Origin: a virus
Virus record (IMG/VR): IMGVR_UViG_3300046009_006755
Location: 1-48,789 of that record
Length of the DNA: 48,789 nucleotides
Direction: 5' to 3' (one strand)
The translations under genes and the position numbers were made by a program. The notes under the pieces are model-generated. The model did not search any database. It had not been told where the DNA came from and saw only the letters and a list, made by a program, of their open reading frames with translations. Shown here in pieces: positions 2,053 through 48,695 of the stretch (its first letter is position 1; the number at the start of each line of letters is the position of its first letter).

Positions 2053-2745
2053 TCAGGCAACGGCTCGCGTCTCCAAGATGTACCGCATGGCCTGCTCGCC
2101 AACGTGTTTGGTGTAGGCCGGCGGGAATCCTTCCTTCAGTTCTTCCCACGACATATCCCGTTCGACGCCCATTGCCTCGCGGCCTTCCTCCACCGTCCTG
2201 GCCGTCGATCCGCCAATGACCAGTTTCCCGGTCTTCTTGCAGACGCCTTTGCAGGTGTCACCCATAACGTGATAGACGCCCACCGGCTTGCCTTGCTCTT
2301 GGTGCCGGCAGCCCGAGCCGACGAGCGGGAACGATGCGAGGAACAGCCGGTGCCGCCGCACCTTCAGCCCGTAGGCCGAGCCGCACTCAATCGCTGCCCC
2401 CTCCATGCCTGGAGCCCCAACTACGTTCTCAACGACCCATGGAATGTCATACGTTCGCAGGAGGGCCAGCGTAGGCGTCAGGAGGTCGCCGTGCCTGCTA
2501 CGCCCGCCTTGGGCAGCTCGCAGATGCTTTGCCCGCGTGTGAGCCTGACACGGCGGCGAGGCGTGGATCAGATCGAACTGCGACACGAAGTCCCGATCCC
2601 CAAGGATCGCAAGAGCGTGAGCCCACACGAATCGGTGCGGGTAACTGGCTCGCAGGAAGATGTCCACGCCGGTCGGCTCAAAGCCCGCCTGGGCGTAGCC
2701 ATCGGCAGCCATCCCGGCCCCGCAGAAGAGATCGAGCACTCGCAT
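2053..2745 (-). CDS. DNA cytosine-C5 methyltransferase
   Basis: A 230-residue protein that transfers a methyl group from SAM to cytosine C5 in DNA. Visible motifs in order: motif I DLFCGAGMAADGY near the N-terminus (SAM site), motif IV ASPPCQ with the catalytic cysteine, motif VI WVVENVVGA, motif VIII RRHRLFLAS, and a motif IX/X-like GFPPAYTKHVG near the C-terminus. It is shorter than restriction-system enzymes (usually over 300 residues), so the target recognition region is small, as in other phage solitary enzymes. No cognate restriction enzyme is visible nearby, so protection of phage DNA or regulation is likelier than a restriction system. No Shine-Dalgarno is seen; see the promoter 6 bases upstream. 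Confidence 0.92.
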   Translation of the reverse strand: MRVLDLFCGAGMAADGYAQAGFEPTGVDIFLRASYPHRFVWAHALAILGDRDFVSQFDLIHASPPCQAHTRAKHLRAAQGGRSRHGDLLTPTLALLRTYDIPWVVENVVGAPGMEGAAIECGSAYGLKVRRHRLFLASFPLVGSGCRHQEQGKPVGVYHVMGDTCKGVCKKTGKLVIGGSTARTVEEGREAMGVERDMSWEELKEGFPPAYTKHVGEQAMRYILETRAVA

Positions 2746-5300: not shown

Positions 5301-5548
5301 TTCGGTTTCTTCCCCGTGCCGCCACAGACCTGGCACTTCACCTTGATCCTGCCATCGCCGACAAATCCGTCGATGCAGTTTTCGCAGTCATCGCTCGCAG
5401 GGGCTGGCGACGGCGACGGCGGCTTCAGCCGGTAGAGAACGGCGAGCCGGGCACCCTCGCACGCGAGATCCGCCGCGACGGTCGGATCGACCGGGCCGCG
5501 ATCGATACAGCCGGCGAGCACCAGGGCGAGCAGGGGAATCCACCGCAT
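5297..5548 (-). CDS. Small lipoprotein with DnaJ-type zinc motif, spanin-like candidate
   Basis: An 83-residue protein beginning MRWIPLLALVLAGC: a short signal peptide with lipobox LAGC, so the mature protein would be lipid-anchored at its first cysteine. The exposed part has a Pro/Ser-rich linker (PPSPSPAPASDDC) and a C-terminal CENC...CQVCGGTGKK pair resembling half of a DnaJ CxxCxGxG zinc centre. Its ATG overlaps the stop of the peptidase gene (TGATG) and its stop overlaps the next ATG. Small phage lipoproteins in lysis blocks are often outer-membrane spanins; the zinc motif is not typical of them. Confidence 0.75.
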   Translation of the reverse strand: MRWIPLLALVLAGCIDRGPVDPTVAADLACEGARLAVLYRLKPPSPSPAPASDDCENCIDGFVGDGRIKVKCQVCGGTGKKPK

Positions 5549-6477
5549 CAGAGCACCCCCTTCAGCCATCCGGCCTCGGGCATGAGCTCGGGCTGAAAGC
5601 CGTTGAACCCCGCGACGGCGTAGGAGTCACCCTTGCACATGCCGTCGATCACCTCGGCATCGACCCAGCCCGACGAACGCTGGAGCGCCTTCGGCAACCG
5701 CTCGTCTACTGGGCCGTCATAGCAGTCGCCCCACGAGTTCGGCACGAGTAGAGCGGGGCGATCCCACCTCAAGTCGCAGCCCATCATGCAGTGGAGCCAC
5801 GTGCCGGCGGGCGTGAGCCAGCCGCCACCGAGGGAGCCGCGGTCAGCGAACCGCATGGAAAAACCACGGGACGAACAAAGGTAGACCGGATACCCGTTGG
5901 AGATCGCCTTCGCACAGTCATCGAACGACCGCACGAGCGTGACTTCAGTCACCTTCCGCTTCGCCGCGTATGGTTCGAGGTCATCGGGCAAGCCCTCGCG
6001 ACCGAGTGCCTTCTCCTGCGTGCCCGAGAGCGGCGACTTGTAGACCGTGCCGCCGTAGTTCTGACCGAAGTGCAGCGTGCCGAAATCTCTGATCGCCTTC
6101 GCCGCGTGGAAGCCCGTGCTCCCGTCGCCTCCCAAGTTCCGCGACTGCCCGCGGGCCTCGACACGCGAGAGCCCGTAGACCACGCCCGGGATGCAGAGCC
6201 CGCCCCACACTTCGGGTTCGCGGCGCAAGAGAATGTCGGCGGCGGCGAGGCAGTCCACCGCCATCGCGGTTCCCCACCCCACACACGAGCCGATCGGCTG
6301 CGAGCCTCGCTTCCACGAGGGCATGCACTTCAGCAGCATCTCCGACAGGCTCACGTCGTGCTGCGCCGCCTGGAGCCCCGGCCCGGCTTCGGCGAGCGTC
6401 GGGTGCGGCAGCGACGAGACGAACGCTTCAGCCCCAGCGGGGTCGGGCGTGTAGCCGAACAACGGGACGAACGCCAC
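5548..6477 (-). CDS. Papain-like (C1-type) cysteine peptidase
   Basis: A 309-residue protein with the papain catalytic order: Cys in QPIGSCVGWGTAMAVD (about residue 65), His in PAGTWLHCMMGCD (about 230) and Asn in LVPNSWGDCYDG (about 249). Papain-like enzymes hydrolyse peptide bonds through a Cys-His pair. No signal peptide is visible. It lies in a block with a lipoprotein and several small membrane proteins, where a phage would normally keep its endolysin, and no conventional lysozyme or amidase is seen in the window. It might cut peptide cross-links of the host wall or process phage proteins. The peptidase call is firm; the lysis role is inferred. Confidence 0.8.
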   Translation of the reverse strand: MAFVPLFGYTPDPAGAEAFVSSLPHPTLAEAGPGLQAAQHDVSLSEMLLKCMPSWKRGSQPIGSCVGWGTAMAVDCLAAADILLRREPEVWGGLCIPGVVYGLSRVEARGQSRNLGGDGSTGFHAAKAIRDFGTLHFGQNYGGTVYKSPLSGTQEKALGREGLPDDLEPYAAKRKVTEVTLVRSFDDCAKAISNGYPVYLCSSRGFSMRFADRGSLGGGWLTPAGTWLHCMMGCDLRWDRPALLVPNSWGDCYDGPVDERLPKALQRSSGWVDAEVIDGMCKGDSYAVAGFNGFQPELMPEAGWLKGVL

Positions 6478-6480
6478 GGC

Positions 6481-6969
6481 TCACCCCCTGCCGATGCCGG
6501 CCCATGCCATCGCCCTAGCAAACTCCGCATACGCTTTGCGGGTGTCGGCTGTCACCGGCACCGTCGCCGCTCCGAGAGCCTTCACGTAGGCAGCCTCGGT
6601 CGCCGTCCGCAGGGCTTCCTGCGACCCGGGCACGTTGCCACCGATCCGCCGCCATGCGATGTCGAGAGCCAGCGTGGTGAACAGCCGTAGGCTCCGCGTG
6701 TCGGTGAACGCGATCTCGGTCGCCACGGCATCGCCTTCGACCACTAGGGCGGCCTTGCTCCACGTGTGAGCCCAGATCGCCCGGTCGCCTGCCGGCAGGG
6801 ATCGCAAAGCCTTCGCCACTGGTTCGACGATCGCGATCATTTCATCACTCGGAGTCTCGGTGTCTACCGTCACGGTTGGGATCGTCGGCACGCTGATGCC
6901 GCGGGGCAGCCCGAACACCGCGAGGTATCCGAGAGCCGCCGCAAGAACGATCCGCGTGCCGCTTGTCAT
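6481..6969 (-). CDS. Membrane-anchored hypothetical protein
   Basis: A 162-residue protein with one N-terminal membrane segment (IVLAAALGYLAVFGLP) and an Ala-rich helical remainder (from PSDEMIAIVEPVAKAL to the C-terminus), probably exposed on one side of the membrane. Start at 6969 is chosen because ATGA overlaps the previous stop. It precedes the peptidase gene by 3 bases. No family recognised; it belongs to the lysis-like block by position. Confidence 0.65.
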   Translation of the reverse strand: MTSGTRIVLAAALGYLAVFGLPRGISVPTIPTVTVDTETPSDEMIAIVEPVAKALRSLPAGDRAIWAHTWSKAALVVEGDAVATEIAFTDTRSLRLFTTLALDIAWRRIGGNVPGSQEALRTATEAAYVKALGAATVPVTADTRKAYAEFARAMAWAGIGRG

Positions 6970-7241
6970 CGCTTCGCCTTGCCTGGACAACCGCCGAGCA
7001 TCACGTCGATCAACTGCTGGCAGAGCGAGACGCCATCCACGCACCCGGCAGCCCTGCACCGCTCGGCGAGATCGAGCACCGTTCGCATTTCGCGAATCCC
7101 GATTGCGGCGGCTTGGGCTTCGGGGCCACCGGCCGCGAGCCTGGCTTTGACTTTGCCCACCACCCAGGAAGCGGCAGGAGCGCCCGCAAGAGCCACTGCC
7201 GCCACGCCGGCGACGATACGAAGAATGCCATCGAAGGTCAC
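6966..7241 (-). CDS. Small membrane protein, GTG start
   Basis: A 91-residue protein starting (GTG) with TFDGILRIVAGVAAVALAGAP, a hydrophobic helix, then a second hydrophobic stretch ending in VVGKVKARL and a Cys-containing helical tail (AERCRAAGCVDGVSLC). The GTG at 7241 overlaps the previous stop (GTGA) with GGAG upstream; the only in-frame ATG upstream would overlap the neighbour far more. A holin-like role is possible for a protein of this size and place, but unproved. Confidence 0.65.
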   Translation of the reverse strand: MTFDGILRIVAGVAAVALAGAPAASWVVGKVKARLAAGGPEAQAAAIGIREMRTVLDLAERCRAAGCVDGVSLCQQLIDVMLGGCPGKAKR

Positions 7242-7546
7242 TTCCGCATCTCCTCGACCTTGAGCAGCACCCATCGCACGAGCGCCTCGCCTTCGGCGGA
7301 ACGCAGCACAGCGGCCAGGTGCTTCACGAGCTCATCGTCGAGGCTGCTTCCCGTGTTCGACGCCAGCCACTCGCAGGCTTCCGCGATGACGATGCCTTGC
7401 TTGTATGGGTCGGCCGACTGCACAAACCGCTGCGCGTAACTGATCAGCGGGGCATACCTCTGGATCAGTGCGAGTTGCTGCCAGATTGAAAGCCGCTCGC
7501 CGTAGCGTGCGTATTCTTCCGCGGTGCCTTCGTAGTTCGGCGTCAT
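7238..7546 (-). CDS. Hypothetical protein in lysis-like block
   Basis: A 102-residue, all-helical, soluble-looking protein (MTPNYEGTAEEYARYGERLS..., ending WVLLKVEEMRK). No motif recognised. Its ATG overlaps the upstream stop (ATGA) and its own stop overlaps the next GTG, so it is translated as part of the coupled series. It may be a cytosolic partner of the neighbouring membrane proteins. Confidence 0.65.
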   Translation of the reverse strand: MTPNYEGTAEEYARYGERLSIWQQLALIQRYAPLISYAQRFVQSADPYKQGIVIAEACEWLASNTGSSLDDELVKHLAAVLRSAEGEALVRWVLLKVEEMRK

Positions 7547-7806
7547 GGCTTGGGCCTCCTCTCTGTTGAGTCTGCCGGTTTGTCGCCGTTACTTGCAGCG
7601 GGCGGGCTTACCGCTCCATCTGCCCACGAATACGCGAGGTTGAACGCGGTGTGCGAGAGATCCACCGCGTCGCGGCGGTCGATCATCCACGGCAACTTGA
7701 ACCGCTCCTCGTCTTCGACGAACCCGTTAGCGTCGCAGCGGTACACGGTGATGTACCAGCGGCCGATGTCGATCAACACTTTGCCGCAGGGAAAGTCTTC
7801 TACCAT
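7543..7806 (-). CDS. Hypothetical protein
   Basis: An 87-residue protein (MVEDFPCGKVLIDIGRWYIT...) with a beta-rich first half (VLIDIGRWYITVYRCD) and a Pro/Asp/Ser-rich C-terminus. The start is set at 7806 because this ATG lies 4 bases before the stop of the upstream gene, in keeping with the short overlaps of its neighbours; the longer reading upstream has a low-complexity Arg/Pro composition typical of a shadow frame. No family recognised. Confidence 0.6.
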   Translation of the reverse strand: MVEDFPCGKVLIDIGRWYITVYRCDANGFVEDEERFKLPWMIDRRDAVDLSHTAFNLAYSWADGAVSPPAASNGDKPADSTERRPKP

Positions 7807-8201
7807 CGCGTGTCGCGATTGAGGTCGTCGAAGAACTCTCGCGCCTCCTCGGGCACCTCGATCTCTTGAATCGTGAACATCGTCGGCTTCGTCACTTGGC
7901 GTTCTGAACGCGTGCGTTCGTCCCAAGTGATCTGCACGCACGTCACGCGGGCCGCGACGGCGGGGGCGAGTGCGAGGCTTGCTTCGCTGGCGGCGATCTC
8001 TTCCGGCGTCGGTGGCGCGGCTCGCTCGGGGCGGTGCCGCAGCCGGCGGTCGTGGCGGGGGGCGAGCGGCACGACCGACTTCAAACGGATCAACTGATCC
8101 TTCGTGATCGTCCAGTGCGTGCAGATAGCGTGCATGGAACTGTGAGAGTTCCACTGCAGCACGAGCGAGGTGAAGTCAATCGTGGCTGTCGAGCCGGCCA
8201 T
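7800..8201 (-). CDS. Hypothetical protein
   Basis: A 133-residue protein. It starts with a beta-like stretch (STATIDFTSLVLQWN), has a basic centre (PRHDRRLRHRPERAAPP), and ends in an acidic segment (EVPEEAREFFDDL). No known motif. The ATG has GAGGTGAAGG just upstream and overlaps the 3' end of the glycosyltransferase gene by 26 bases, so it is co-expressed with the glycan cassette and the lysis-like block. Function unknown. Confidence 0.6.
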   Translation of the reverse strand: MAGSTATIDFTSLVLQWNSHSSMHAICTHWTITKDQLIRLKSVVPLAPRHDRRLRHRPERAAPPTPEEIAASEASLALAPAVAARVTCVQITWDERTRSERQVTKPTMFTIQEIEVPEEAREFFDDLNRDTRW

Positions 8202-9057
8202 CCTTCACCTCTTGAGGCACCCAAAACGAAACGCATCGGCTCGACGGGTTCAACCCGAAACGCCCGCCGTGTGCCGCGATGCTGCGGTGGAACGTCACGT
8301 GCTCGCAGTCCTCGCCGCTGTACCGCCCCTGGAGGAACCGCTCGCCACGGTAGACAGCCAACTGCCCGAACGCGGAGCGGAACTCCACGGGCGGCGAGCC
8401 GACCGACGGATGCCAGAGATGGAACCACGACTGATCGCGACGCTGCCAGTGATTCAGTCGAGCGGCGAAGGCGTCATAGTGGATCGGCCCCATTCCAGAG
8501 AGTTGGGCAACCTCCGCCCACGAGTAAGACGCGAGCCCGTACCACGAGCGGTACAGTTCAAGCCACGCGATGCTACTCGCCACACCGTCAACGCTCCACC
8601 CGCCCCAGGCGTCGGTGTCGAACACGATCACGTAGTCGGGCTTCTCGCCGTGCCGAACAAACTCTTGGCACGCGGCGCGGTACTCCGCAAGCGCGATCGT
8701 TCGCACCGGCTCGATCGTCCCGTTCAAGTGCGGGCGGCCGTTGATGTTCAGCGACACTTGCCGCCGCTCGCCGTCAGCCCACACCGAGAGCACGTCCTTC
8801 GTCTCGTCGATCGAATCGTTCTCATAGATGAACGCCGACCACTCGCGAAACATCGCGCCCGTCTCTTCGACGAGCCGGAGCGTCTGCGGCAGGAACGGCA
8901 TCGCGTTCCGGCAGATGGCAACCAAGGCGACCGTGGCATCCGCCGCGGCGTGCCTCCCGTACTTCACGTCGCGCACGTAGTCGAGAGCGAACTCCGCGTC
9001 GGGCGGCAGGAACGCGTCGGCTTGGTGGGCGGCGACTTCGTCACGCGTGATCTGCAT
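8176..9057 (-). CDS. Glycosyltransferase, GT-A type
   Basis: A 293-residue protein. A Rossmann-like strand and loop (ATVALVAICRNAMPFLPQT) leads to WSAFIYENDSIDETKDVL and then VIVFDTDAWGGWS, a DxD metal-binding motif typical of GT-A nucleotide-sugar transferases. The C-terminal half has conserved acidic and aromatic residues (SGEDCEHVTFHRSIAAHGG). The pattern is like GT2/GT69-type polysaccharide transferases. Sugar donor and acceptor are unknown. It lacks membrane segments. It is the last gene of the seven-gene glycan cassette and has a good GGAGAG ribosome site. Confidence 0.8.
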   Translation of the reverse strand: MQITRDEVAAHQADAFLPPDAEFALDYVRDVKYGRHAAADATVALVAICRNAMPFLPQTLRLVEETGAMFREWSAFIYENDSIDETKDVLSVWADGERRQVSLNINGRPHLNGTIEPVRTIALAEYRAACQEFVRHGEKPDYVIVFDTDAWGGWSVDGVASSIAWLELYRSWYGLASYSWAEVAQLSGMGPIHYDAFAARLNHWQRRDQSWFHLWHPSVGSPPVEFRSAFGQLAVYRGERFLQGRYSGEDCEHVTFHRSIAAHGGRFGLNPSSRCVSFWVPQEVKDGRLDSHD

Positions 9058-9754
9058 GATCGTCTCTCCGCGTCTCCACCCACGCGAGCGGCGGATCGCC
9101 GTCGAGATCGTCCGCAGTCACCGCCACGCGATGATGCTCGGTATGCCACTCCGCACTCGGCACATGCGTGCCTTTCTCGGCACCGATGTTTTGGATTCGC
9201 GAGACGGTGGGAAACGCCTCGTACCGCCCGGCCCGTAGAGCGTGATTGACGATCACATCCCACGAGGTCGCATCGTCACGAGCCCACCCGTGGGCGAGGC
9301 CCAGCCACCGATCCCGCCACGTGCCCCAGCCCCACGGCGTGAACCACCGTCGCAGCCCGCACTCGCCGGTGCGACCGTTGCTGATCTTCTGGTAGCCGCT
9401 CACGTTCATCACGGCGGGATCGTCGCGGTATCGCTCGCGTGCCCAGGCGAACCACCGCAGGCAGTCGCGTGTCGGAACGCAATCATCCTCGAAGTGAAGA
9501 TGAAACTCGCTGCCCATCTGCTCGAAGCCGAACGCGAACGCCGACCGGATCGCCTGGTTGCATCCCACCCGGCGATCAAACGTCGCCGACTCGCAGCCGT
9601 ACCGGGCAGCCAGCCCAGCGGAGCGGGTCGCGTGCTCCGACGGGTCGATCAGCACGACCACGCGGCAGGCTTCGATGCCGATGCACGACCGCAAAGCGGC
9701 GAGCGTCTGCTCGAGATACTCGGGGCGGTTGTAGGCGGAGACGGTGATGTTCAA
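9041..9754 (-). CDS. Family-2-like glycosyltransferase
   Basis: About 237 residues. It opens with LNITVSAYNRPEYLEQTL (typical GT2 start), then VVVLIDPSE and LHFEDDCVPTRD, where EDD is the donor-binding acidic motif, and FTPWGWGTWRDRW, a signature common in GT-A transferases that act on surface glycans. The start is uncertain: a TTG at 9754 gives a 4-base TTGA overlap like its neighbours, while the longer reading to ATG 9814 overlaps the epimerase gene and has shadow-like composition. Acceptor unknown. Confidence 0.82.
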   Translation of the reverse strand: MNITVSAYNRPEYLEQTLAALRSCIGIEACRVVVLIDPSEHATRSAGLAARYGCESATFDRRVGCNQAIRSAFAFGFEQMGSEFHLHFEDDCVPTRDCLRWFAWARERYRDDPAVMNVSGYQKISNGRTGECGLRRWFTPWGWGTWRDRWLGLAHGWARDDATSWDVIVNHALRAGRYEAFPTVSRIQNIGAEKGTHVPSAEWHTEHHRVAVTADDLDGDPPLAWVETRRDDHADHA

Positions 9755-10287
9755 GCGAGCGGATTCCAAGCGGCGTCTTTCGCCGACGTGATCACCGCGG
9801 GCACCGCGGGCCACACCACTCCTATAGCGGGATCGTCAAACCGTGCGCCGGTCTCCGACTCGGGGTGATGCCCGGCGAACGCCACCGAGTAACTGCACCG
9901 CGAGGTCGGGGAGAGCGTCAGCATCCCGTGCGCGAAGCCTCGCGGAACGAACAGGAGATTCCGCCGCTCGTGCGAGAGCGTCACGCCGACCCACTGCCGG
10001 AACGTGGGCGAGTCGGGCCGCACGTCCACCGCCACGTCGAACACCTCGCCGTAGTGGCACGCCACGAGCTTCGCCTGCTCGTGCGGTGCCCTTTGCCAGT
10101 GCAAGCCACGCAGCACGCCACACGAACTCTCCACGAACTTGGTCGAGATCCACGCCCCGGGCAGCCCGGCGTTGGCGAACTGCCACGTGTGCCACGCTTC
10201 GCCGATCCACCCGCGTTCGTCAACGTGCGGCTCGATCACCACCTCGATGACTTCGGGAAGCCTCGTCGGTCGGAAGTCGATCTTCAT
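9751..10287 (-). CDS. rmlC: dTDP-4-dehydrorhamnose 3,5-epimerase-like protein
   Basis: A 178-residue cupin enzyme of the RmlC family, which epimerises C3 and C5 of a dTDP-4-keto-6-deoxy sugar in rhamnose and related pathways. Visible family features: DERGWIGEAWH, GVLRGLHWQ with the catalytic-base histidine, VFDVAVDVRPDSPTF, FVPRGFAHGML, and the closing FDDPAIGVVWP. Length matches the family (about 180). The ATG overlaps the previous stop (ATGA). No RmlA or RmlB homologue is in the window, so the keto-sugar substrate would have to come from the host, or the enzyme acts on another dTDP/GDP sugar. Confidence 0.9.
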   Translation of the reverse strand: MKIDFRPTRLPEVIEVVIEPHVDERGWIGEAWHTWQFANAGLPGAWISTKFVESSCGVLRGLHWQRAPHEQAKLVACHYGEVFDVAVDVRPDSPTFRQWVGVTLSHERRNLLFVPRGFAHGMLTLSPTSRCSYSVAFAGHHPESETGARFDDPAIGVVWPAVPAVITSAKDAAWNPLA

Positions 10288-11669
10288 GCCGTGGGAAAGT
10301 TGGTCGGGGCTCCGGTCGCGCCAGAGTATTCGTGGTACTTCGGGCGGTAGTTCTCGCCCAGCCAGCCAACCGTTTGCTGAAGGATGCCGTCGTGGGCGGG
10401 AGACCCGTCATAGAGTTCAAAGTTTTCGAGCGTGTCCCGGTGCCCGGCGGCGACGAGTTCCTCCCAGAGTTCGGTCCCGGGGAACGGAATGCAGTCGCTG
10501 ATCTGCCAGTGAACGCGGTTGCCGTGCTCCGCCCCCAGCCGCTCGAGCCCCTGGAGCAACTCTTGATCTCGCTGCCACGATCCGGGCTTCTCGCCCGGGA
10601 GGTTTCTCATGGTCGTGAAATGAAACTCCATCCCCGAGTATCGCGTCACGAGATACTTCAGATTCTCGTATGCGACCTGAACGTCGAGCGATTTCTTGAC
10701 GTTGTCGGCGAGCGTCTGATCGAACGTCTCCACCCCGAACCGCATGCCCACGCAACCGGCATCGACCATGCGGTCATAGAGTTCTGGCTTGCTCGTGTCG
10801 ATCCGGCCCATCATCGTCCACGGCAGCGACAGATCCTTGAGCCCGGCGAGGATCTTCTCGATCCTGCTCTTGCCTAGGTTCCACGTGTCATCGTCGAAGA
10901 AGATGCTCTTCATCTCATCGCCGAGCCACGCCTTCGCCTGGCGGAGTTCATCGACAACGGCATCGGCGGAGCGGGCGCGGTACTTGCCCGCGTTCATGAC
11001 GTTCGGCCATTGGCAATACGAACACTTGAACGGGCAGCCGCGCGAGGTCATCACCGTGAGTTGAACCTTCTCGGTCGGCATCGAGGGATCGTAGTAGTTG
11101 GCGAGCATCTCCGCCGGCGGTCGCCATGGGATGAAGTTCCGCCCGTCGGGGAGCGTGTCGATGTTCTCCAAGTGCTCAAAGCGGTAGATCGGCTTCGCCT
11201 GGTCGCCACGCCGGCAGATGTCAAGGACAGGAATGTCCGGTTCCCCGATCACGCAATGATCGACGTGAGGCTGCTCGATCCACCGCTCGGCATACGCTTT
11301 CATGTGCGGCCCGGTGTAGACGTTGCGGCAGTTGAAACTCTCCTTCGCCCACTTCGCGATCCCGTCGATGATGCCGACCGTCGGCGTCGCCACGTCATAG
11401 ACCACCACGTCGGGCTTGAACGAAGCGAACGCCATACGGGTGAAGTCGAGGCTCCAGTGCCGTTGCGCGACGCCGTCATAGAACGCGCAGTCGATCCCGT
11501 GGTGGGCGGCGTAGGTCATCGCCCAACTGAGCCAGAACGGAAACGGGGCGTAGCCTGAGAAGTGCGGCCCGGGATTCGTCCAGGGCCACCGGCTGCCGGC
11601 GTTCGGCCCGGTGTAGATCTCGCCGTGCTTCCACCGGATGAAGGGAATGTTCGCGAATAAGACCTTCAC
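10284..11669 (-). CDS. Cobalamin-type radical SAM enzyme
   Basis: A 461-residue protein with an N-terminal B12-binding-like Rossmann region (VLFANIPF..., VVVYDVATPTVGIIDGIA) and a radical SAM core with SRGCPFKCSYC, the CxxxCxxC 4Fe-4S site, then IFFDDDTWNLG and MRFGVETFDQT. The classical DxHxxG base-off cobalamin motif is not visible, so cobalamin use is uncertain. Such enzymes do methylations, ring rearrangements and other radical chemistry in natural-product and lipid or sugar pathways. A GTG at 11669 gives a 4-base overlap with the upstream stop and is preferred to the in-frame ATG at 11687. Its substrate is probably a sugar or glycolipid, by context. Confidence 0.88.
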   Translation of the reverse strand: MKVLFANIPFIRWKHGEIYTGPNAGSRWPWTNPGPHFSGYAPFPFWLSWAMTYAAHHGIDCAFYDGVAQRHWSLDFTRMAFASFKPDVVVYDVATPTVGIIDGIAKWAKESFNCRNVYTGPHMKAYAERWIEQPHVDHCVIGEPDIPVLDICRRGDQAKPIYRFEHLENIDTLPDGRNFIPWRPPAEMLANYYDPSMPTEKVQLTVMTSRGCPFKCSYCQWPNVMNAGKYRARSADAVVDELRQAKAWLGDEMKSIFFDDDTWNLGKSRIEKILAGLKDLSLPWTMMGRIDTSKPELYDRMVDAGCVGMRFGVETFDQTLADNVKKSLDVQVAYENLKYLVTRYSGMEFHFTTMRNLPGEKPGSWQRDQELLQGLERLGAEHGNRVHWQISDCIPFPGTELWEELVAAGHRDTLENFELYDGSPAHDGILQQTVGWLGENYRPKYHEYSGATGAPTNFPTA

Positions 11670-12550
11670 AGTTTTGTCTCCAGCCAATCCACGAGGGCGG
11701 TCATGCGGTGGGCGAACGTGTGCCGTTCGAGTACGAGCCGCCGGCCCGCTTCGCGGAACGGTTGCGTCTCGTGCGGATGCTTCAAGAAATGTCCTACCAC
11801 CCGCCGCAACTCCTCGCCGCCGTCAGTGAACGCGAGGCATCCGGCGAACTCGGCTTCCAACTGCGGCGACCAATCGCTCACCATGAAGCCACCGCAGGCG
11901 AGGGCGCAGAAGATCCGGTAGTTGAACGAGCCGTACTCGAGGTGCTCGCGGAGGTGAGAATTCAAGCAGACGCCGGCGGCCGAGTACGCTGCCGCCTCCG
12001 CTTCGACCGAGCACTTCCCGCGACACACCGGATCGTTCCACGCCGCCGGATTGCCGAACACGACGAGCCCCTGGTCGCGGCAGGCGAGGATTTGCCGCTC
12101 GGTGGTCTCGCGGTCGCGGATGTTGTTCCCCACGAACACGACCGGAAGCGGTGCCGCGTTCTCACGTGGATAGAACACCTCGGGATCGACGGCGAACTGC
12201 AGCACGAGCCCGTCGCCGCACCGATCCCGCAGCCCCGGCGAAGGAAACACGAACGCGTCGAAATGCGGGCGAGCCCGGGCGAACATCTCGACCGTGCCCG
12301 GCCACTCCGGTTGTGGGAAGACGTTCTGGAGGTAGAGCACTTGAAGCCCTGTCGTGCCCTTGGCAAACGGCGTGAATGAAACGCAGGCGTCGGCGGGCTC
12401 GAGCCCGTTGAGCTCGGCACGCTCCACGCGGGCGTCGCGGGCGAGGTACTTCACCCAGGCCCGGGCGACCATCTCGTCGCCCTGCACGTTCGCTCCGTTG
12501 TCCTCGGTCGAGATCGACGAGACCGAAGGCACGAGCACGTTGATCTTCAT
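11666..12550 (-). CDS. Glycosyltransferase with CgeB-like C-terminal domain
   Basis: A 294-residue protein starting MKINVLVPSVSSISTEDNG. The middle has FVFPSPGLRDRC and VVFVGNNIRDRETTERQ; the end has the pattern CLNSHLREHLEYGSFNYRIFCALACGGFMVSDWSP, which is typical of glycos_transf_1_2/CgeB domains in GT-B enzymes (nucleotide-sugar-binding half). Enzymes of this kind add single sugars to surface glycans, spore coats or natural products. The ATG overlaps the RmlD-like gene's stop (ATGA). The reading frame extends far upstream but overlaps the neighbour and is rejected as shadow. Confidence 0.8.
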   Translation of the reverse strand: MKINVLVPSVSSISTEDNGANVQGDEMVARAWVKYLARDARVERAELNGLEPADACVSFTPFAKGTTGLQVLYLQNVFPQPEWPGTVEMFARARPHFDAFVFPSPGLRDRCGDGLVLQFAVDPEVFYPRENAAPLPVVFVGNNIRDRETTERQILACRDQGLVVFGNPAAWNDPVCRGKCSVEAEAAAYSAAGVCLNSHLREHLEYGSFNYRIFCALACGGFMVSDWSPQLEAEFAGCLAFTDGGEELRRVVGHFLKHPHETQPFREAGRRLVLERHTFAHRMTALVDWLETKL

Positions 12551-13248
12551 GCCGTCACCAGCGACAGGTCGCGCGGCACGAGCGGGTTGTCGCACCGCCC
12601 CGGAACCACGAGGTCGGGATCGAGCCCGCGAAGCACGGCGATCGTGCGGAAGAGATCGAAGCGGTTCACACGCCGCCCGCCGGCCACGTGGATGATTCCC
12701 CGGCGACCCTCGCCCACGGCGTCGAGAATGCCCGCAGCAAGGGTGTCCACCGGGGTTGGGGTATTGAACCGATCCTCCCACGCCTCGACCGTCTGGCCGC
12801 GTGCCAGGCGGTCCACGAGCCACGCGATCCACGGGCAGCCTTCGGCGATCACGTGAGCGGTGCGGACGATCAGCACCGTCGGGCAGGCGGCGAGCACGGC
12901 ATCCTCGCCTCGAACCTTGCTCACGCCGTAGGCGGTCTTCGGATTCGGGGCTTCGTTGGCGGCGTACCCGCCCCGGCTGCCGTCGAACACGTAGTCGGTG
13001 GAGACGTACACGAACACCCCGCCGGCCCGGCGGGCGACCTTCGCCGCCGCCCGCATGTTCCGGCACGCTGCCATCGCGGGATCAGACTCGCACGCACCGA
13101 TCGCCTTCGTGCCGCTGGCCCACACGACGAGCGACGCGTACTCAATCGCCGGAGAGACTGCCGCCTCTTCGGCGCTGATCGGCTGCCCCGGAAACTCCAT
13201 CGCGGCATGGAGCGACCGCCCGACGAAGCCGCGACCCACGACGATCAT
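12547..13248 (-). CDS. RmlD-like NAD(P)-dependent sugar reductase/epimerase
   Basis: A 233-residue short-chain dehydrogenase of the extended type. The start MIVVGRGFVGRSL holds the Gly-rich nucleotide-binding turn; VYVSTDYVFDG and TAYGVSKVRGED carry the Ser/Thr and YxxxK catalytic residues. PTVLIVRTAHVI follows. The set matches dTDP-4-dehydrorhamnose reductase (RmlD), which reduces the RmlC product, but the protein is about 60 residues shorter than usual RmlD and the glycine motif is GRGFVG rather than GxxGxxG, so another NDP-sugar reductase is possible. Four-base overlap at both ends. Confidence 0.82.
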   Translation of the reverse strand: MIVVGRGFVGRSLHAAMEFPGQPISAEEAAVSPAIEYASLVVWASGTKAIGACESDPAMAACRNMRAAAKVARRAGGVFVYVSTDYVFDGSRGGYAANEAPNPKTAYGVSKVRGEDAVLAACPTVLIVRTAHVIAEGCPWIAWLVDRLARGQTVEAWEDRFNTPTPVDTLAAGILDAVGEGRRGIIHVAGGRRVNRFDLFRTIAVLRGLDPDLVVPGRCDNPLVPRDLSLVTA

Positions 13249-13871
13249 CGCCGCACCCAGATCGAGGCACCGTTGCGGATCGCGTCGTTCTCCCACACGA
13301 GCCGCCACTCGCGATCGGCGGCGAGCTCGGCGTGAGCCCGGCTGCACTTGTACGCGTGATGCACGTCATCAAGCATGAGGCACTTCGCGTGTGGCTTCGC
13401 GAGCCGGTAGTCATCGAAGCCGGCGAACTCGCAGCCATCGACAAGCACCACGTCGAACGTCTCGCCTTCGAGGCATTCGAGGAATCCGACTTTCACATCC
13501 GCGAGAAACGCCTGCGTCTCATCCCACCACTTTTGCACCAACTCGCGCGGGTAGCGGAGGTGATTGTGCGGCGAGTCCCAAATCTCTTCGAACGTCTGCG
13601 GCGTGAGCGAAGCCCGCGTGATCGACGAGCCGAACACCGGCTTGATCCACGGGTAGTCGCGCACGTTCTCCACGAGTTGCACGTACCGCGTGGCGTTCGC
13701 CTCCAGGGCGACGATCAGCGGGTCTTGCGCGTGTGCAAGAGCCTTGATCAAGACACTGGTCGAACCCGTGCCATCCCACGCGCCGATCTCGAGCACCGTC
13801 TCGAAGCCGTGCTCGCGGATCGCCTGAATGATGGCGCGACCGAACGAATCGTCGGCGGTGATTTCGGGCAT
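13245..13871 (-). CDS. SAM-dependent methyltransferase
   Basis: A 208-residue class I methyltransferase. Motif I is TVLEIGAWDGTGSTSVL; the acidic residue after strand 2 is in IVALEANATR; DVVLVDGCEF and CLMLDDVHHAYKC correspond to later strands. The arrangement resembles small-molecule or sugar methyltransferases (Methyltransf_24 or FkbM-like) rather than DNA enzymes. Start ATG 13871 overlaps the RusA stop by one base (TGATG); TTG at 13874 is an alternative. It leads the glycan cassette, so methylation of a sugar is the likely job. Confidence 0.8.
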   Translation of the reverse strand: MPEITADDSFGRAIIQAIREHGFETVLEIGAWDGTGSTSVLIKALAHAQDPLIVALEANATRYVQLVENVRDYPWIKPVFGSSITRASLTPQTFEEIWDSPHNHLRYPRELVQKWWDETQAFLADVKVGFLECLEGETFDVVLVDGCEFAGFDDYRLAKPHAKCLMLDDVHHAYKCSRAHAELAADREWRLVWENDAIRNGASIWVRR

Positions 13872-14278
13872 CAACTGATGCGGATCGTAGTCCGTCCCTC
13901 CGTTCCGAAACTCTTCTCGACGATCACCTTCCCGACTTGGGTGTCATCCACCCACGCCACGCCGTTCAGCGAATCTTCGATTCCCTTGAGCACGTTCGAG
14001 CAATCGGCCCGCGGGAGCTTCGGGGCGTCGGGCTTCAGCCCTGCTTTGCGGTAGTGGCTCTTCGGGCGGGCGAACACGAGATCGACGATCAGCGTGATCG
14101 GCACCGCGTCGCTGGGCTCCGCCCCCGCGGCCCGGGCGGCAGCCGCAACCGCCGCCCGGTACGCGTGGATCGGATGATCACCCGGCGTGTACGCCCGGCC
14201 GAAGCCACCGCGAGTGGAGATCCTCGCGCGGGGCTGCGGCACCGGGTCGCCTTCGACGGTGAAGGTGACGGTCTTCAT
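13871..14278 (-). CDS. rusA: RusA-type Holliday-junction resolvase
   Basis: A 135-residue protein of the RusA family, which cuts four-way DNA junctions during phage recombination and packaging. Family signs: VEGDPVPQPRARI near the start, a basic central segment, RADCSNVLKGIEDSLNGV, and WVDDTQVGKVIVEK. In the usual DxDN motif the second aspartate is serine here (DCSN), while the distal DD is kept, so activity should not be assumed. Length is normal (about 120-140). It has a start at 14278 and overlaps the next gene by one base. Confidence 0.85.
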   Translation of the reverse strand: MKTVTFTVEGDPVPQPRARISTRGGFGRAYTPGDHPIHAYRAAVAAAARAAGAEPSDAVPITLIVDLVFARPKSHYRKAGLKPDAPKLPRADCSNVLKGIEDSLNGVAWVDDTQVGKVIVEKSFGTEGRTTIRIS

Positions 14279-15013: not shown

Positions 15014-15751
15014 CTAATCGCCGCCAATGATCCCGGTGATCCACTCCCGGTGCAGGCTCACGCGGGTGTGTCCGCTCTCCTCGCCCGCCTTCGACTTGAG
15101 CGGCCCGCGATCCGCCGACGTGAAGGAGTTGATCCCGGCGAGTTTTCCATCGACGAATAGCGGCCCGCCCGAGTCACCAGGGGCGATGCCGTACTCGAGC
15201 GGCGACGAGCCACGCGAGATGAGGCATACGATCACGCCGCCCTCCAGCCTGGTGATCGTCTGCGTGCCCGCCCGGAGCTTGGCATCCGCCGTGGTGTAGC
15301 CCGTCGAGATCCGGCCCGTGATGCCGAACCCGGCGATCTGGCAGAGGTCGCCCGCCTCTTCACCGCCGTCGCAGAGCGGCGGATACCACGAGAGGCCGAC
15401 CGGGGCAGCCGTCCGCAGCAACGCAATATCGTTCAGCCCCATCCGCCCGGGCTGCCACTCGTGATGCACGTAGATCGTCTCGATGCGGATGCTCTGATCG
15501 TTGACCACGACCAGGCACGTGCCCGCCTCGCTCGCCACGTGTGCCGCCGTGAGCACCCAGCGGTCGGCGATCGCCACGCCGGTCGCGTAGTAGACCCGGC
15601 GGTCTGAGGCTTCGAGACCCGTCACAAACGCAGTGTAAGGGGCGAAGCCGGCGGCGTAGTCGAGATACCGGGCATCGGGAATCCCGTCATCGGTCGTGCC
15701 CGCGAGCGCGGCCGTGGCTGCCAGCACGATCGAGATCGCGAGCGCCCGCAT
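15014..15751 (-). CDS. Exported trypsin-like serine protease
   Basis: A 245-residue protein: signal peptide (MRALAISIVLAATAALAG), then the S1 triad: VLTAAHV (His), LNDIALLRT (Asp) and APGDSGGPLFVDG (Ser, oxyanion hole). Two cysteine pairs may form disulfides, as expected outside the cytoplasm. It cleaves peptide bonds; specificity is not readable. Trypsin-like exported proteases are unusual in phage genomes, and this one sits among replication genes, so it looks like a lysogenic-conversion or defence-related cargo gene. A strong hairpin separates it from the clamp gene upstream. Confidence 0.9.
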   Translation of the reverse strand: MRALAISIVLAATAALAGTTDDGIPDARYLDYAAGFAPYTAFVTGLEASDRRVYYATGVAIADRWVLTAAHVASEAGTCLVVVNDQSIRIETIYVHHEWQPGRMGLNDIALLRTAAPVGLSWYPPLCDGGEEAGDLCQIAGFGITGRISTGYTTADAKLRAGTQTITRLEGGVIVCLISRGSSPLEYGIAPGDSGGPLFVDGKLAGINSFTSADRGPLKSKAGEESGHTRVSLHREWITGIIGGD

Positions 15752-25436: not shown

Positions 25437-26342
25437 ATGACTTTGCGGGAACTGTTCGAGAGGTACGCCACCCTTCGTAACCTCGACGCCAAGACGATTT
25501 CGCTCTACGGTCAACTCGCCGACCGCGTGGAGCGGTTCCTCGGCCGTGAAGCCACGGTCGCCGACCTCGACGATCTCGTGATCAGCCGGTATCTCCGGTG
25601 GCGAGCCCAGACGCCGGGGTGGAAGGGGAAGATTCCAAGCGCCGCAAGTGTCCAGAAGGATCGCGTGATGCTCCAAGCGGCGTGGAATCTTGCCGCCCGC
25701 AAGAGGTGGGCGAGCGAGTTCCCTGAACTGCCACGCATCAAGGTGCCGAAGAGGCTGCCGGCCGGCCGGGCGTACACGGTCGAGGATGTGACAAAACTCG
25801 TGGTGCGAGCCAAACGCCGACAAGGGCACACCGGCGGCAAGCCTTCGGCGTGGTGGTGGTCGACGGTGGTCTACGCCGCCTACTGCACAGGCGAAAGATT
25901 CACGGCTCTCACGTCGCTCCGCTGGGCGCAGGTGGATCTCGTGCGGCTGAAGGTTGTTTTCCTTGGTGAAACCCGCAAAGGGCACACCCGCGACATTGAG
26001 CGAGACATCACGCCCGAACTCGCGAGGATGCTCGCCACTCAGGAAGGCCCGCCCGATGCCCTGGTGTGGCCTTGGGATCGCAAGAGCCGGTCCCAGTGGA
26101 GCAGCCTCAAGCTCCTCTGTAGGCTCGCTGGCGTGCGGTACAGGGGCTTCCACGGGTTCCGCCGTACTGCCGCCTCCTACGCAGCCCTGGCCGGCGGCAA
26201 GGCCGCTGCGACAGCCCTGCTCGATCATGCAGATCCAGCCCTCCAGCGGGTCTACGTGGATACCGACATCTGCCCGGAGGAGCGGGCCGTGCTGCCGCCG
26301 CTTGATCTCGCCGAGAAGCCGCCTGAGAAGCCAGCGGCATAG
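25437..26342 (+). CDS. int: Tyrosine-family site-specific integrase
   Basis: About 301 residues. An N-terminal SAM-like core-binding domain (TLRELFERYATLRNLDAKTISLYGQLADRV) is followed by the catalytic domain: Arg I in YCTGERFTALTSLRW, a lysine-bearing turn in GETRKGHTRDI, HGFRR (His-x-x-Arg II), LLDHAD (second His) and the nucleophile candidate in LQRVYVD. It joins phage and host attachment sites by a covalent DNA-tyrosine intermediate. The start at 25437 is preferred because GAGGGG lies about 10 bases upstream; ATG 25419 is the alternative. It is the only plus-strand gene and converges on the late genes. The phage is therefore probably temperate. Confidence 0.9.
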   Translation: MTLRELFERYATLRNLDAKTISLYGQLADRVERFLGREATVADLDDLVISRYLRWRAQTPGWKGKIPSAASVQKDRVMLQAAWNLAARKRWASEFPELPRIKVPKRLPAGRAYTVEDVTKLVVRAKRRQGHTGGKPSAWWWSTVVYAAYCTGERFTALTSLRWAQVDLVRLKVVFLGETRKGHTRDIERDITPELARMLATQEGPPDALVWPWDRKSRSQWSSLKLLCRLAGVRYRGFHGFRRTAASYAALAGGKAAATALLDHADPALQRVYVDTDICPEERAVLPPLDLAEKPPEKPAA

Positions 26343-47022: not shown

Positions 47023-47446
47023 TCAATCCGCTCCTGGCTGATGGCGTCAGCCCGAACTCTTGCTCGATTCGCAGCATCGACGCGGCCAGCTTCGACAGCA
47101 TCGTCGCGGCCGGCGTCGATTGCATGTACTTCACCTTACCGGCATCGTCACGGATCACGAGCACATCAAGCCCGCGACGGCACTGGTCGAGGTACTTCAC
47201 AAACTGCTCGTGCATCGTGCAGTAGCGGGCAATCGTGTCTACATCGGCATTCGTCATCACGCCCATGCCGATGAGTTTCGGCACGACGTTGTCCCACTTC
47301 TCGCGGGCAACGCCCGTCACCCACCCAGGCGGCGCGATGTCATCGCTTGGCGGTTTTGGTTCGTTGTGGTTGAGGGGCTTTTTGCCTGGGTTGCCCTTGG
47401 CTATCTTCAGGATCGTCGGCTCTTTGCGTGGCCCTCGCTTGCCCAT
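46958..47446 (-). CDS. terS: Small terminase subunit, P27 family
   Basis: A 162-residue protein: MGKRGPRKEPTILKIAKGNPGKKPLNHNEPKPP is the standard start of P27-family small terminases, with PPGWVTGVAREKWDNVVPKLIGMGVMTNADVDTIARYCTMHEQF following. It binds the packaging site and starts DNA packaging with TerL. The gene lies inside the 3' end of the ParB-methyltransferase gene by 107 bases and overlaps TerL by 65 bases. Call firm. Confidence 0.92.
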   Translation of the reverse strand: MGKRGPRKEPTILKIAKGNPGKKPLNHNEPKPPSDDIAPPGWVTGVAREKWDNVVPKLIGMGVMTNADVDTIARYCTMHEQFVKYLDQCRRGLDVLVIRDDAGKVKYMQSTPAATMLSKLAASMLRIEQEFGLTPSARSGLSAAKEKPVDDLADFFARHQSG

Positions 47447-48695
47447 TGGATGCCTCCAGTTCTGCCTTCTTGCCGGTCAGCGTTTCCCACCGCTTCACGA
47501 TCACGTCACAGTAGGCCGGGCTGATCTCCATGCCGTAGCACTTGCGGCCCAGCTGCTCGGCGGCGATGAGCGTGGTGCCGGTTCCGCAAAACGGTTCATA
47601 AACGCTCTTCGATTGGTCGCATAGCGTCTGCATCACCCAAGCGGGAACGTGTAGGGGCATGGTGGCCGCATGGATGTCTGAAAACTCGTTTCCTCTTTGC
47701 GGAGGCGCGACATAGACACTCTGGACGGTGCCTTGCCACGACGAGAGCGGGACGGCCCTCGACGCGCCATTGCTGGCGGCGAAGATAATCATCCACTCGT
47801 AACGCGACGCCATGACGCCTGCCGCCATCTGCGGTGCGGCGTGGCCTTTGTCCCAAGTGGCGACATCAACAAGCCTGCCCGCGTTGTCTGCGATAAACCG
47901 GACCAGGTCTCGCTTGTTTCCGGCCAGTGGCTGCACGTTGACAACCCACACATCCGAAACAGCCGTATCGCTCGCAGCGAACCATGCGGACATCAGTCCG
48001 GCCCACTCGGCGGCGTTGTCTTCGTGATCATCGTATGGGTTCCCGCTTGCTGCCATCTTTTTGTTGCCAGACAACGCGACGGACTTTCCCAGTCCATACG
48101 GCGGCGACGTGAAACACAAATCTGCCTTCGCCCCAGCCATCAGCCGCCCCACGTCATCAGCCTTAGTCGAGTCGCCGCAGAGCAGTCGGTGATCTCCGAG
48201 AATCCAGAGGTCGCCCGGCCTCGTGATCGGATCGACTGGCGGCTCTGGCACCTCGTCTTCGACGATCTCCTTGTCGCCGTCCTGGTAGAGCTCGGCGGCC
48301 TCGGCCAGGTCCGCGTACATCTGCTGGAGCCCTTCGCTCCCGGTATCCACCTCGCGGAGCAAGGCGTCAAGAGCCTGCACATTCGTCTCGGCCAACGCCG
48401 CAAGCGGATCGAGCGACAGGAGGAGCTTGTCGGCCTCGGCTTCGTTTATGTCGAGGATGAGAACCGGAACCTCTTGCTCGGGCGTGGTCTCGGCCCGAAG
48501 GTGCCCGTCCACCAGCATCAGCGAGCCGTCGGGCAGTTCGCGGGCGAGCAAGGCGTCGGCGTAGCCAACTTCCGCCAGGATGCCACGCAGGGCGTCCTGT
48601 TGCGCCTTGGGGTGCGTTCGCCAGTTCCTCGGGTTCGGAGCCAGTTCCGACGCTTTGACCGTGCGGAGGGCTTTGACGCGGTTGCGGATGTTCAT
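47340..48695 (-). CDS. ParB-like nuclease domain fused to DNA methyltransferase
   Basis: A 451-residue protein. N-terminal ParB/Srx-like domain (VKASELAPNPRNWRTHPKAQQDAL, LPDGSLMLVDGHLRAE, VLILDINEAEADKLLLSLD). Then a beta-class amino-methyltransferase: CFTSPPYGLGKS (motif IV, TSPPY), later SVYEPFCGTGTTLIAAEQLGRKCYGMEISPAYCDVIVKRWE (motif I, X). Ends in a basic, Gln-rich tail. Methylates adenine N6 or cytosine N4. Fusions of this kind are common beside terminase genes of phages. Only the last gene before the right end. Confidence 0.88.
   Translation of the reverse strand: MNIRNRVKALRTVKASELAPNPRNWRTHPKAQQDALRGILAEVGYADALLARELPDGSLMLVDGHLRAETTPEQEVPVLILDINEAEADKLLLSLDPLAALAETNVQALDALLREVDTGSEGLQQMYADLAEAAELYQDGDKEIVEDEVPEPPVDPITRPGDLWILGDHRLLCGDSTKADDVGRLMAGAKADLCFTSPPYGLGKSVALSGNKKMAASGNPYDDHEDNAAEWAGLMSAWFAASDTAVSDVWVVNVQPLAGNKRDLVRFIADNAGRLVDVATWDKGHAAPQMAAGVMASRYEWMIIFAASNGASRAVPLSSWQGTVQSVYVAPPQRGNEFSDIHAATMPLHVPAWVMQTLCDQSKSVYEPFCGTGTTLIAAEQLGRKCYGMEISPAYCDVIVKRWETLTGKKAELEASNGQARATQRADDPEDSQGQPRQKAPQPQRTKTAKR

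What the first reader, a model, noticed from the sequence alone, without database searches (positions are those of the whole stretch)
8176..13871. Seven-gene glycan cassette with a radical SAM enzyme inside a phage genome
Directly visible: methyltransferase, RmlD-like reductase, CgeB-like glycosyltransferase, CxxxCxxC radical SAM protein, RmlC-like epimerase and two DxD-type glycosyltransferases in one run, nearly all joined by 4-base overlaps. Family knowledge: RmlC and RmlD act on dTDP-4-keto-6-deoxy sugars, and the CgeB-like and GT-A enzymes transfer single sugars. Inference: the set could build or alter a deoxysugar on host surface glycan (lysogenic conversion, receptor masking) or on the virion. 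RmlA and RmlB are absent, so the keto-sugar would come from the host. A radical SAM step with a B12-like Rossmann region in such a set is uncommon and I do not know a described phage system of this make-up.
Basis: partly seen in the sequence, partly recalled or inferred. Interest (0 to 1): 0.82.

Follow-up and report, generated by a model that had tools for sequence, protein, structure and literature searches.

The report
Swappable sugar-tailoring module in phages
A virus of bacteria carries a three-gene sugar-attaching set with an exchangeable slot; in this virus the slot holds a radical-enzyme sugar-tailoring module that unrelated giant phages and bacterial surface-sugar gene clusters also carry, suggesting a shared way of disguising cell (or virus) surfaces.

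Summary
The seven genes are real and are sugar enzymes, inside a true siphovirus-like contig with an integrase. They are two units, not one cassette. (1) A chassis, methyltransferase–GT-A–GT-A, sits between RusA and a block of small genes in dozens of uncultured relatives; in 17 of 27 contigs holding both the methyltransferase and the first transferase, those genes simply abut. (2) A module, RmlD-like reductase–CgeB-type transferase–radical SAM–RmlC, fills that slot here and in close relatives. Reductase, CgeB and radical SAM recur together, rearranged but coupled, in phage contigs up to 356 kb (29–39% GC) and in five bacterial genomes, several with polysaccharide exporters. The radical SAM gene and its CgeB partner were found on the same phage contigs. 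Its best structural match is AprD4 (sugar diol dehydratase); its best family profile is HpnJ (glucosamine-to-cyclitol). Neither membership test is met. Most likely the trio makes an unusual residue on a glycan by radical dehydration or rearrangement plus reduction; host surface glycan is somewhat likelier than virion. Acceptor, reaction and host are unproven. RmlC is probably an accessory. Undescribed variant of a known kind (phage glycan cassettes), with a natural empty-site series.

The parts
13245..13871 (-). MT: Rossmann O-methyltransferase-like protein, first gene of the chassis
   Evidence: Methyltransf_24 E 0.015; profile to O-methyltransferase family 3, 1.5e-3; conserved next to GTA1 in relatives
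12547..13248 (-). RmlD-like short-chain reductase (233 aa, short C-terminus); trio member
   Evidence: PF04321 7.8e-35; YxxxK and STD motifs invariant across 10 trio members
11666..12550 (-). CgeB-type GT-B glycosyltransferase; trio member
   Evidence: PF13524 4.4e-19; found on the same phage contigs as the radical SAM
10284..11669 (-). Radical SAM enzyme, AprD4/HpnJ-like; trio member
   Evidence: PF04055 2.3e-12; NCBIfam HpnJ 1.8e-32 but below cut-off; AF2 pLDDT 86, AprD4 6fd2 Z 26.5
9751..10287 (-). RmlC: dTDP-4-keto-6-deoxyglucose 3,5-epimerase, optional module member
   Evidence: TIGR01221 157.5 bits against cut-off 155.75; PDB 2.6e-37 with conserved His, Lys and Tyr
9041..9754 (-). GTA1: GT13-like GT-A transferase of the chassis
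   Evidence: profile of 21 relatives matches POMGnT1 3e-14 and GnT-I 3e-10
8176..9057 (-). GTA2: GT-A transferase of the chassis
   Evidence: AF2 pLDDT 89, GT-A fold: Mnn9 Z 18.4, COLGALT1 Z 18.1
13871..14278 (-). RusA resolvase, constant upstream boundary
   Evidence: PF05866 1.1e-21; upstream of the chassis in relatives
5548..8201 (-). Block of six small ORFs (o133 to o309), constant downstream boundary, function unknown
   Evidence: same order after GTA2 in relatives; no PHROG match
25437..26342 (+). Tyrosine integrase
   Evidence: PHROG integrase 2.5e-25

Best explanation
A phage glycan-modification locus made of a fixed chassis (MT, GTA1, GTA2) with an exchangeable slot. Here the slot holds RmlD-like reductase + CgeB transferase + AprD4/HpnJ-like radical SAM, plus RmlC. 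Inferred mechanism: the CgeB enzyme attaches a sugar; the radical SAM enzyme abstracts a hydrogen from that residue and dehydrates or rearranges it; the RmlD-like enzyme reduces the resulting keto group, giving an unusual (probably deoxy or ring-altered) sugar. RmlC adds a 3,5-epimerised keto-sugar supply from host dTDP-4-keto-6-deoxyglucose. GTA1 and GTA2 build the rest of a short chain and MT caps it by methylation. The likeliest acceptor is a host surface glycan assembled in the cytosol, changed during lysogeny or infection so that it no longer serves rival phages. Shown: gene content, folds, coupling of the trio, slot exchange. Inferred: reaction, order of steps, acceptor, purpose.
For: The radical SAM model's best PDB match by both aligners is AprD4, a sugar diol dehydratase with a reductase partner (PMC5461906). 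The best NCBIfam profile is HpnJ, which acts on a lipid-bound glucosamine after a transferase (PMC12583986). The N-terminal AGSR[WY] motif is shared with HpnJ and other relatives. The CgeB scan of viral contigs found only contigs already found with the radical SAM: 11, the twelfth being cut at the contig end. The RmlD-like gene joins them in each of the ten contigs (window included) where upstream sequence exists in that order. The trio also occurs in five bacterial genomes in two gene orders, beside Wzm/Wzt exporters in two and beside a Wzx-type flippase, a nucleotidyltransferase and transferases in a third. Phage radical SAMs form one clade (100/100) nested among bacterial trio members (99/97). 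Slot: MT and GTA1 abut in 17 of 27 contigs, inserts of 0.6-3.5 kb in 10; GTA1 starts NTGA on the upstream stop in every junction inspected, whatever gene precedes it. No dCMP/dUMP-hydroxymethylase family member in 13 records.
Against: No biochemistry. Neither AprD4 nor HpnJ cut-offs are met, so the exact reaction may differ (methylation, epimerisation or oxidation cannot be excluded). No exporter, flippase or GtrA was found in the phage (GtrA tested), and none of the seven proteins has an obvious membrane helix, so surface delivery would depend wholly on the host. The larger phages show no integrase, so lysogenic conversion cannot explain them. The host is unknown and no cultured relative of the phage was found.
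Confidence: 0.5

Rival explanations
1. The locus glycosylates the virion: soluble transferases decorate head or tail proteins with the tailored sugar, hiding the particle or tuning adsorption.
For: All seven proteins lack obvious membrane helices; no GtrA; the trio occurs in large phages without a detected integrase; GTA1 and GTA2 resemble protein-glycan transferases (POMGnT1, COLGALT1); phage glycosyltransferases have been read this way (PMC11256854).
Against: The bacterial homologues of the trio lie in surface-polysaccharide clusters. GT-A fold similarity does not fix the acceptor.
Confidence: 0.3
2. The RmlC/RmlD pair simply completes dTDP-L-rhamnose from host keto-sugar, and the radical SAM is an unrelated passenger.
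For: RmlC is above its equivalog cut-off; RmlD-like active-site residues are kept.
Against: RmlD-like scores far below its cut-off (120 against 224) and is found with CgeB and radical SAM in contigs and genomes without RmlC nearby or, for the 356 kb and 147 kb phages, anywhere on the contig; the radical SAM is the best conserved member (64-66% across phages).
Confidence: 0.1
3. The genes modify phage DNA or make a diffusible small molecule rather than a glycan.
For: Phages do glycosylate bases (general knowledge); AprD4-type enzymes occur in aminoglycoside biosynthesis.
Against: No hydroxymethylase-family enzyme in any of 13 records; bacterial context is polysaccharide.
Confidence: 0.07

Closest known systems
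AprD4/AprD3 (apramycin C3'-deoxygenation: radical SAM diol dehydratase plus NADPH reductase)
   Same: Closest solved fold over 393 residues; radical SAM paired with a separate reductase; acts on an already glycosidic amino sugar
   Different: 19% identity; far below the NCBIfam AprD4 cut-off; here a CgeB transferase is the constant third partner; substrate unknown
HpnI-HpnK-HpnJ (bacteriohopanetetrol cyclitol ether pathway)
   Same: HpnJ is the best family profile; transferase followed by radical SAM on the transferred sugar; shared AGSR[WY] N-terminal motif
   Different: Far below the HpnJ cut-off; no hopanoid genes or deacetylase seen; different transferase family
Jumbo-phage and cyanophage polysaccharide-modification clusters (PMC7824862)
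   Same: Phage-borne epimerases, sugar isomerases and transferases, variable between relatives, proposed to alter host O antigen
   Different: No radical SAM or CgeB is mentioned in that text; here a small integrase-bearing phage with a defined slot
Pelagimyophage hypervariable region with glycosyltransferases and radical SAM cassettes (PMC7029224)
   Same: Gain of radical SAM cassettes near glycosyltransferases distinguishes related phages
   Different: Marine T4-like phages; no described trio, chassis or partner analysis in the passages read
Gtr seroconversion cassettes of temperate phages
   Same: Temperate-phage glycan change as a model of purpose
   Different: No GtrA found; soluble enzymes only

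Membership tests
Radical SAM superfamily | CxxxCxxC motif and PF04055 above cut-off | tested here: met
   C212, C216, C219 invariant; 47.8 bits against 29.5
AprD4 radical SAM diol dehydratase (NF033070) | Score above curated cut-off of 500 bits | tested here: not met
   65.2 bits; fold match Z 26.5 shows similarity only
HpnJ (TIGR03471) | Score above curated cut-off of 577.6 bits | tested here: not met
   112.8 bits
B12-dependent class B radical SAM | Recognisable B12-binding domain (PF02310) | tested here: inconclusive
   No PF02310 hit for the window enzyme; the N-terminal fold matches both AprD4 and B12 enzymes, so cobalamin use cannot be decided
RmlC dTDP-4-keto-6-deoxyglucose 3,5-epimerase (TIGR01221) | Score above cut-off; catalytic His and Tyr | tested here: met
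   157.5 against 155.75; residues aligned
RmlD dTDP-4-keto-rhamnose reductase (TIGR01214) | Score above cut-off of 224 | tested here: not met
   120.1 bits; SDR YxxxK kept
CgeB-type / Glyco_trans_1_2 transferase | PF13524 above cut-off of 25 | tested here: met
   69.3 bits
GT13 (GnT-I/POMGnT1) | Sequence-profile homology over the catalytic domain | tested here: inconclusive
   GTA1 profile 3.4e-14 to POMGnT1; donor and acceptor not testable
GT-A fold glycosyltransferase (GTA2) | GT-A fold | tested here: met
   Z 18.4 over 229 residues
Gtr seroconversion cassette | GtrA flippase | tested here: not met
   PF04138 absent in all 13 records, some of which are fragments
Glycosylated-base DNA modification system | dCMP/dUMP hydroxymethylase (thymidylate synthase family) | tested here: not met
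   PF00303 absent in all 13 records
Sugar-tailoring function of the trio | Enzymatic activity on a glycoside | not testable with these tools
   needs biochemistry

The most novel reading that the evidence does not exclude
A conserved glycosyltransferase-radical SAM-reductase unit that rebuilds a sugar after it has been attached (dehydration or ring contraction on the glycan), acquired by phages from bacterial surface-polysaccharide clusters and traded between unrelated phages, in small phages through an exchangeable slot: a radical-chemistry route to a glycan not described before.
Probability: 0.4. Interest if true: 0.8.

Novelty: new variant of a known kind. Interest (0 to 1): 0.62.

Why it matters
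If right, phages and bacteria share an undescribed radical-SAM pathway for tailoring surface sugars. The related phages form a natural experiment (empty slot, this module, other radical SAM modules), so the effect of one sugar change on phage receptor use can be tested gene by gene. It also gives a functional lead for a radical SAM family now known only by distant similarity to AprD4 and HpnJ.

Tried and rejected
One-cassette reading: rejected after finding empty and differently filled slots. Ordinary host O-antigen cluster misbinned as virus: rejected, both flanks are conserved phage-family genes and the contig holds TerL, portal, head and tape-measure genes. Standard rhamnose pathway: see rivals. 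DNA modification: no hydroxymethylase. Nucleotide search of cultured phages: only short unrelated matches. Cultured phage relatives by protein: radical SAM only Streptomyces phage SF3 at 22%, in a different context; GTA2 none; GTA1 one weak Microbacterium phage; host therefore not assigned. Single-sequence PDB search with CgeB: none; the CgeB profile gave only chance-level hits. Methyltransferase assignment remains weak. Tree placement of AprD4, HpnJ, Lawsonia and SF3 rests on long branches and is not used. The phylum searches sampled 386 and 297 genomes, so frequencies in bacteria are rough.

Full report
Observation. The seven genes exist as described, on the minus strand from 13871 to 8176. 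Refined starts make five of six internal junctions 4-base NTGA overlaps, and third-position GC of 0.80–0.85 shows genuine coding. Pfam supports RmlC, RmlD, radical SAM and CgeB-type transferase clearly and the other three weakly. Profiles from relatives and an AlphaFold model raise GTA1 (GT13-like, 3e-14 to POMGnT1) and GTA2 (GT-A fold, Z 18) to secure glycosyltransferases. MT is a weakly assigned Rossmann methyltransferase. The record is a 48,789-base virus contig with terminase, portal, head protein, tape measure and integrase. RmlB is absent by HMM, and an RmlA-type query gives no hit.

Two units, not one. Scans with GTA2 and GTA1 brought in 54 viral contigs. Many keep the order RusA–MT–GTA1–GTA2–o133 to o309. 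Where MT and GTA1 are both present (27 contigs) they abut in 17 and are separated by 0.6–3.5 kb in 10. The inserts are of several kinds: the RmlD–CgeB–radical SAM–RmlC module (window, L008, and L002 as far as its contig reaches); an Azospirillum-plasmid-like radical SAM plus a conserved protein of unknown function (L058, L059, L064, L065); a radical SAM fused to a transferase-like domain (L070); FkbM methyltransferase plus an unknown gene (L061–L063). In every junction inspected GTA1 begins NTGA on the stop codon of whatever gene lies upstream, so exchange preserves translational coupling. A second variable site lies between GTA1 and GTA2 (17 of 36 contigs with more than 80 nt there).

The module elsewhere. 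The radical SAM protein is 64–66% identical over its full length in contigs of 39–356 kb whose sampled loci have 29–39% GC, against 63% in the window. The 356 kb and 147 kb records, and a 91 kb record that holds only the tail of the gene, have a T4-like head protein. The CgeB scan of the same collection returned 11 contigs, all already found with the radical SAM; the twelfth is cut at its end. The RmlD-like gene precedes CgeB in each of the ten contigs (window included) with upstream sequence in that order, and in the 356 kb phage the pair lies about 3 kb away on the other strand. RmlC is missing from the 356 kb and 147 kb records altogether. In bacteria, two genomes carry RmlD–(other)–CgeB–radical SAM after a Wzm/Wzt exporter pair. 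Three more carry CgeB–radical SAM–RmlD in the other order, one with a flippase, nucleotidyltransferase and other transferases, and two with a GTA1-like transferase close by. The tree places all phage copies in one clade (100/100) inside the bacterial trio clade (99/97), which suggests one acquisition from bacteria and later spread among phages. An alternative, several transfers from unsampled bacteria, is not excluded.

Mechanism. The radical SAM model (pLDDT 86) matches AprD4 best by Foldseek and by VIA-align (Z 26.5, rmsd 3.3, 393 residues), about 2.5 Z units above the next entry. AprD4 is a radical SAM diol dehydratase of a sugar, working with reductase AprD3 (PMC5461906). The best family profile is HpnJ, the last step in converting a transferred glucosamine into a cyclitol ether (PMC12583986). 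Both known relatives therefore act on a sugar already in glycosidic linkage, and both have dedicated partners. The constant company of a transferase and a reductase fits the sequence transfer, radical dehydration or rearrangement, reduction. This is inference; the curated cut-offs of both families are missed by a wide margin, and methylation or other radical chemistry is not excluded. RmlC passes its own cut-off and looks functional, but its absence from many trio settings (the two largest T4-like records and the bacterial loci read here) makes it an accessory.

Purpose. Bacterial homologues sit in surface-polysaccharide clusters, and phage slot turnover looks like an arms race over recognition. 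Host surface modification is my first choice (about 0.5), virion glycosylation the second (about 0.3). The soluble enzymes, absence of GtrA and lack of an integrase in the large phages keep the second alive. The absence of the hydroxymethylase family weighs against base glycosylation. Many viral records are fragments, so absences are soft.

Prior knowledge. Phage sugar clusters proposed to change host polysaccharide are described (PMC7824862), as are radical SAM cassettes near transferases in pelagimyophages (PMC7029224). My searches of the held library found no paper joining CgeB, radical SAM and phage and none on the trio, but that library is partial. The finding is filed as a new variant of a known kind.

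Noticed in passing
L065:2386-4596, L058:3262-5004, L059:1245-3098 versus L064:3655-5004: An intein sits exactly before the second cysteine of the CxxxCxxC cluster motif of the slot radical SAM: full-length with an HNH endonuclease in L065, mini-intein in L058 and L059, absent in L064, whose sequence equals the spliced product at the junction.
   Followed up: partly
L070:3442-4998: A third kind of radical SAM fused to a GT2-like domain fills the same MT-GTA1 slot.
   Followed up: partly
between GTA1 and GTA2 (window about 9041-9057) in relatives: A second variable site lies between GTA1 and GTA2, most often holding one family of about 200 aa proteins (21 members, no Pfam hit for the one tested).
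   Followed up: partly
window 15014-15751: A trypsin-like protease gene with a signal-like N-terminus lies just upstream of RusA and recurs in many relatives.
   Followed up: no
L004:12201-13325 and equivalents in L003, L005, L006, L012: An IMP dehydrogenase/GMP reductase-like gene is part of the extended glycan cluster of the large phages.
   Followed up: no
window 2053-2745 and 47340-48695: DNA methyltransferase genes near both ends of the contig, one with a ParB-like domain.
   Followed up: no
L032:5881-8455 (Streptomyces phage SF3): A distant B12-type radical SAM is followed by thymidylate kinase and NUDIX genes in a cultured phage, possibly a nucleotide modification set.
   Followed up: no
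L031:5627-12105 (Eleftheria terrae plasmid): Related radical SAM beside a PIG-L deacetylase, oxidoreductase, WecB/TagA transferase and a cobalamin-dependent protein, reminiscent of the HpnI-K-J logic.
   Followed up: no
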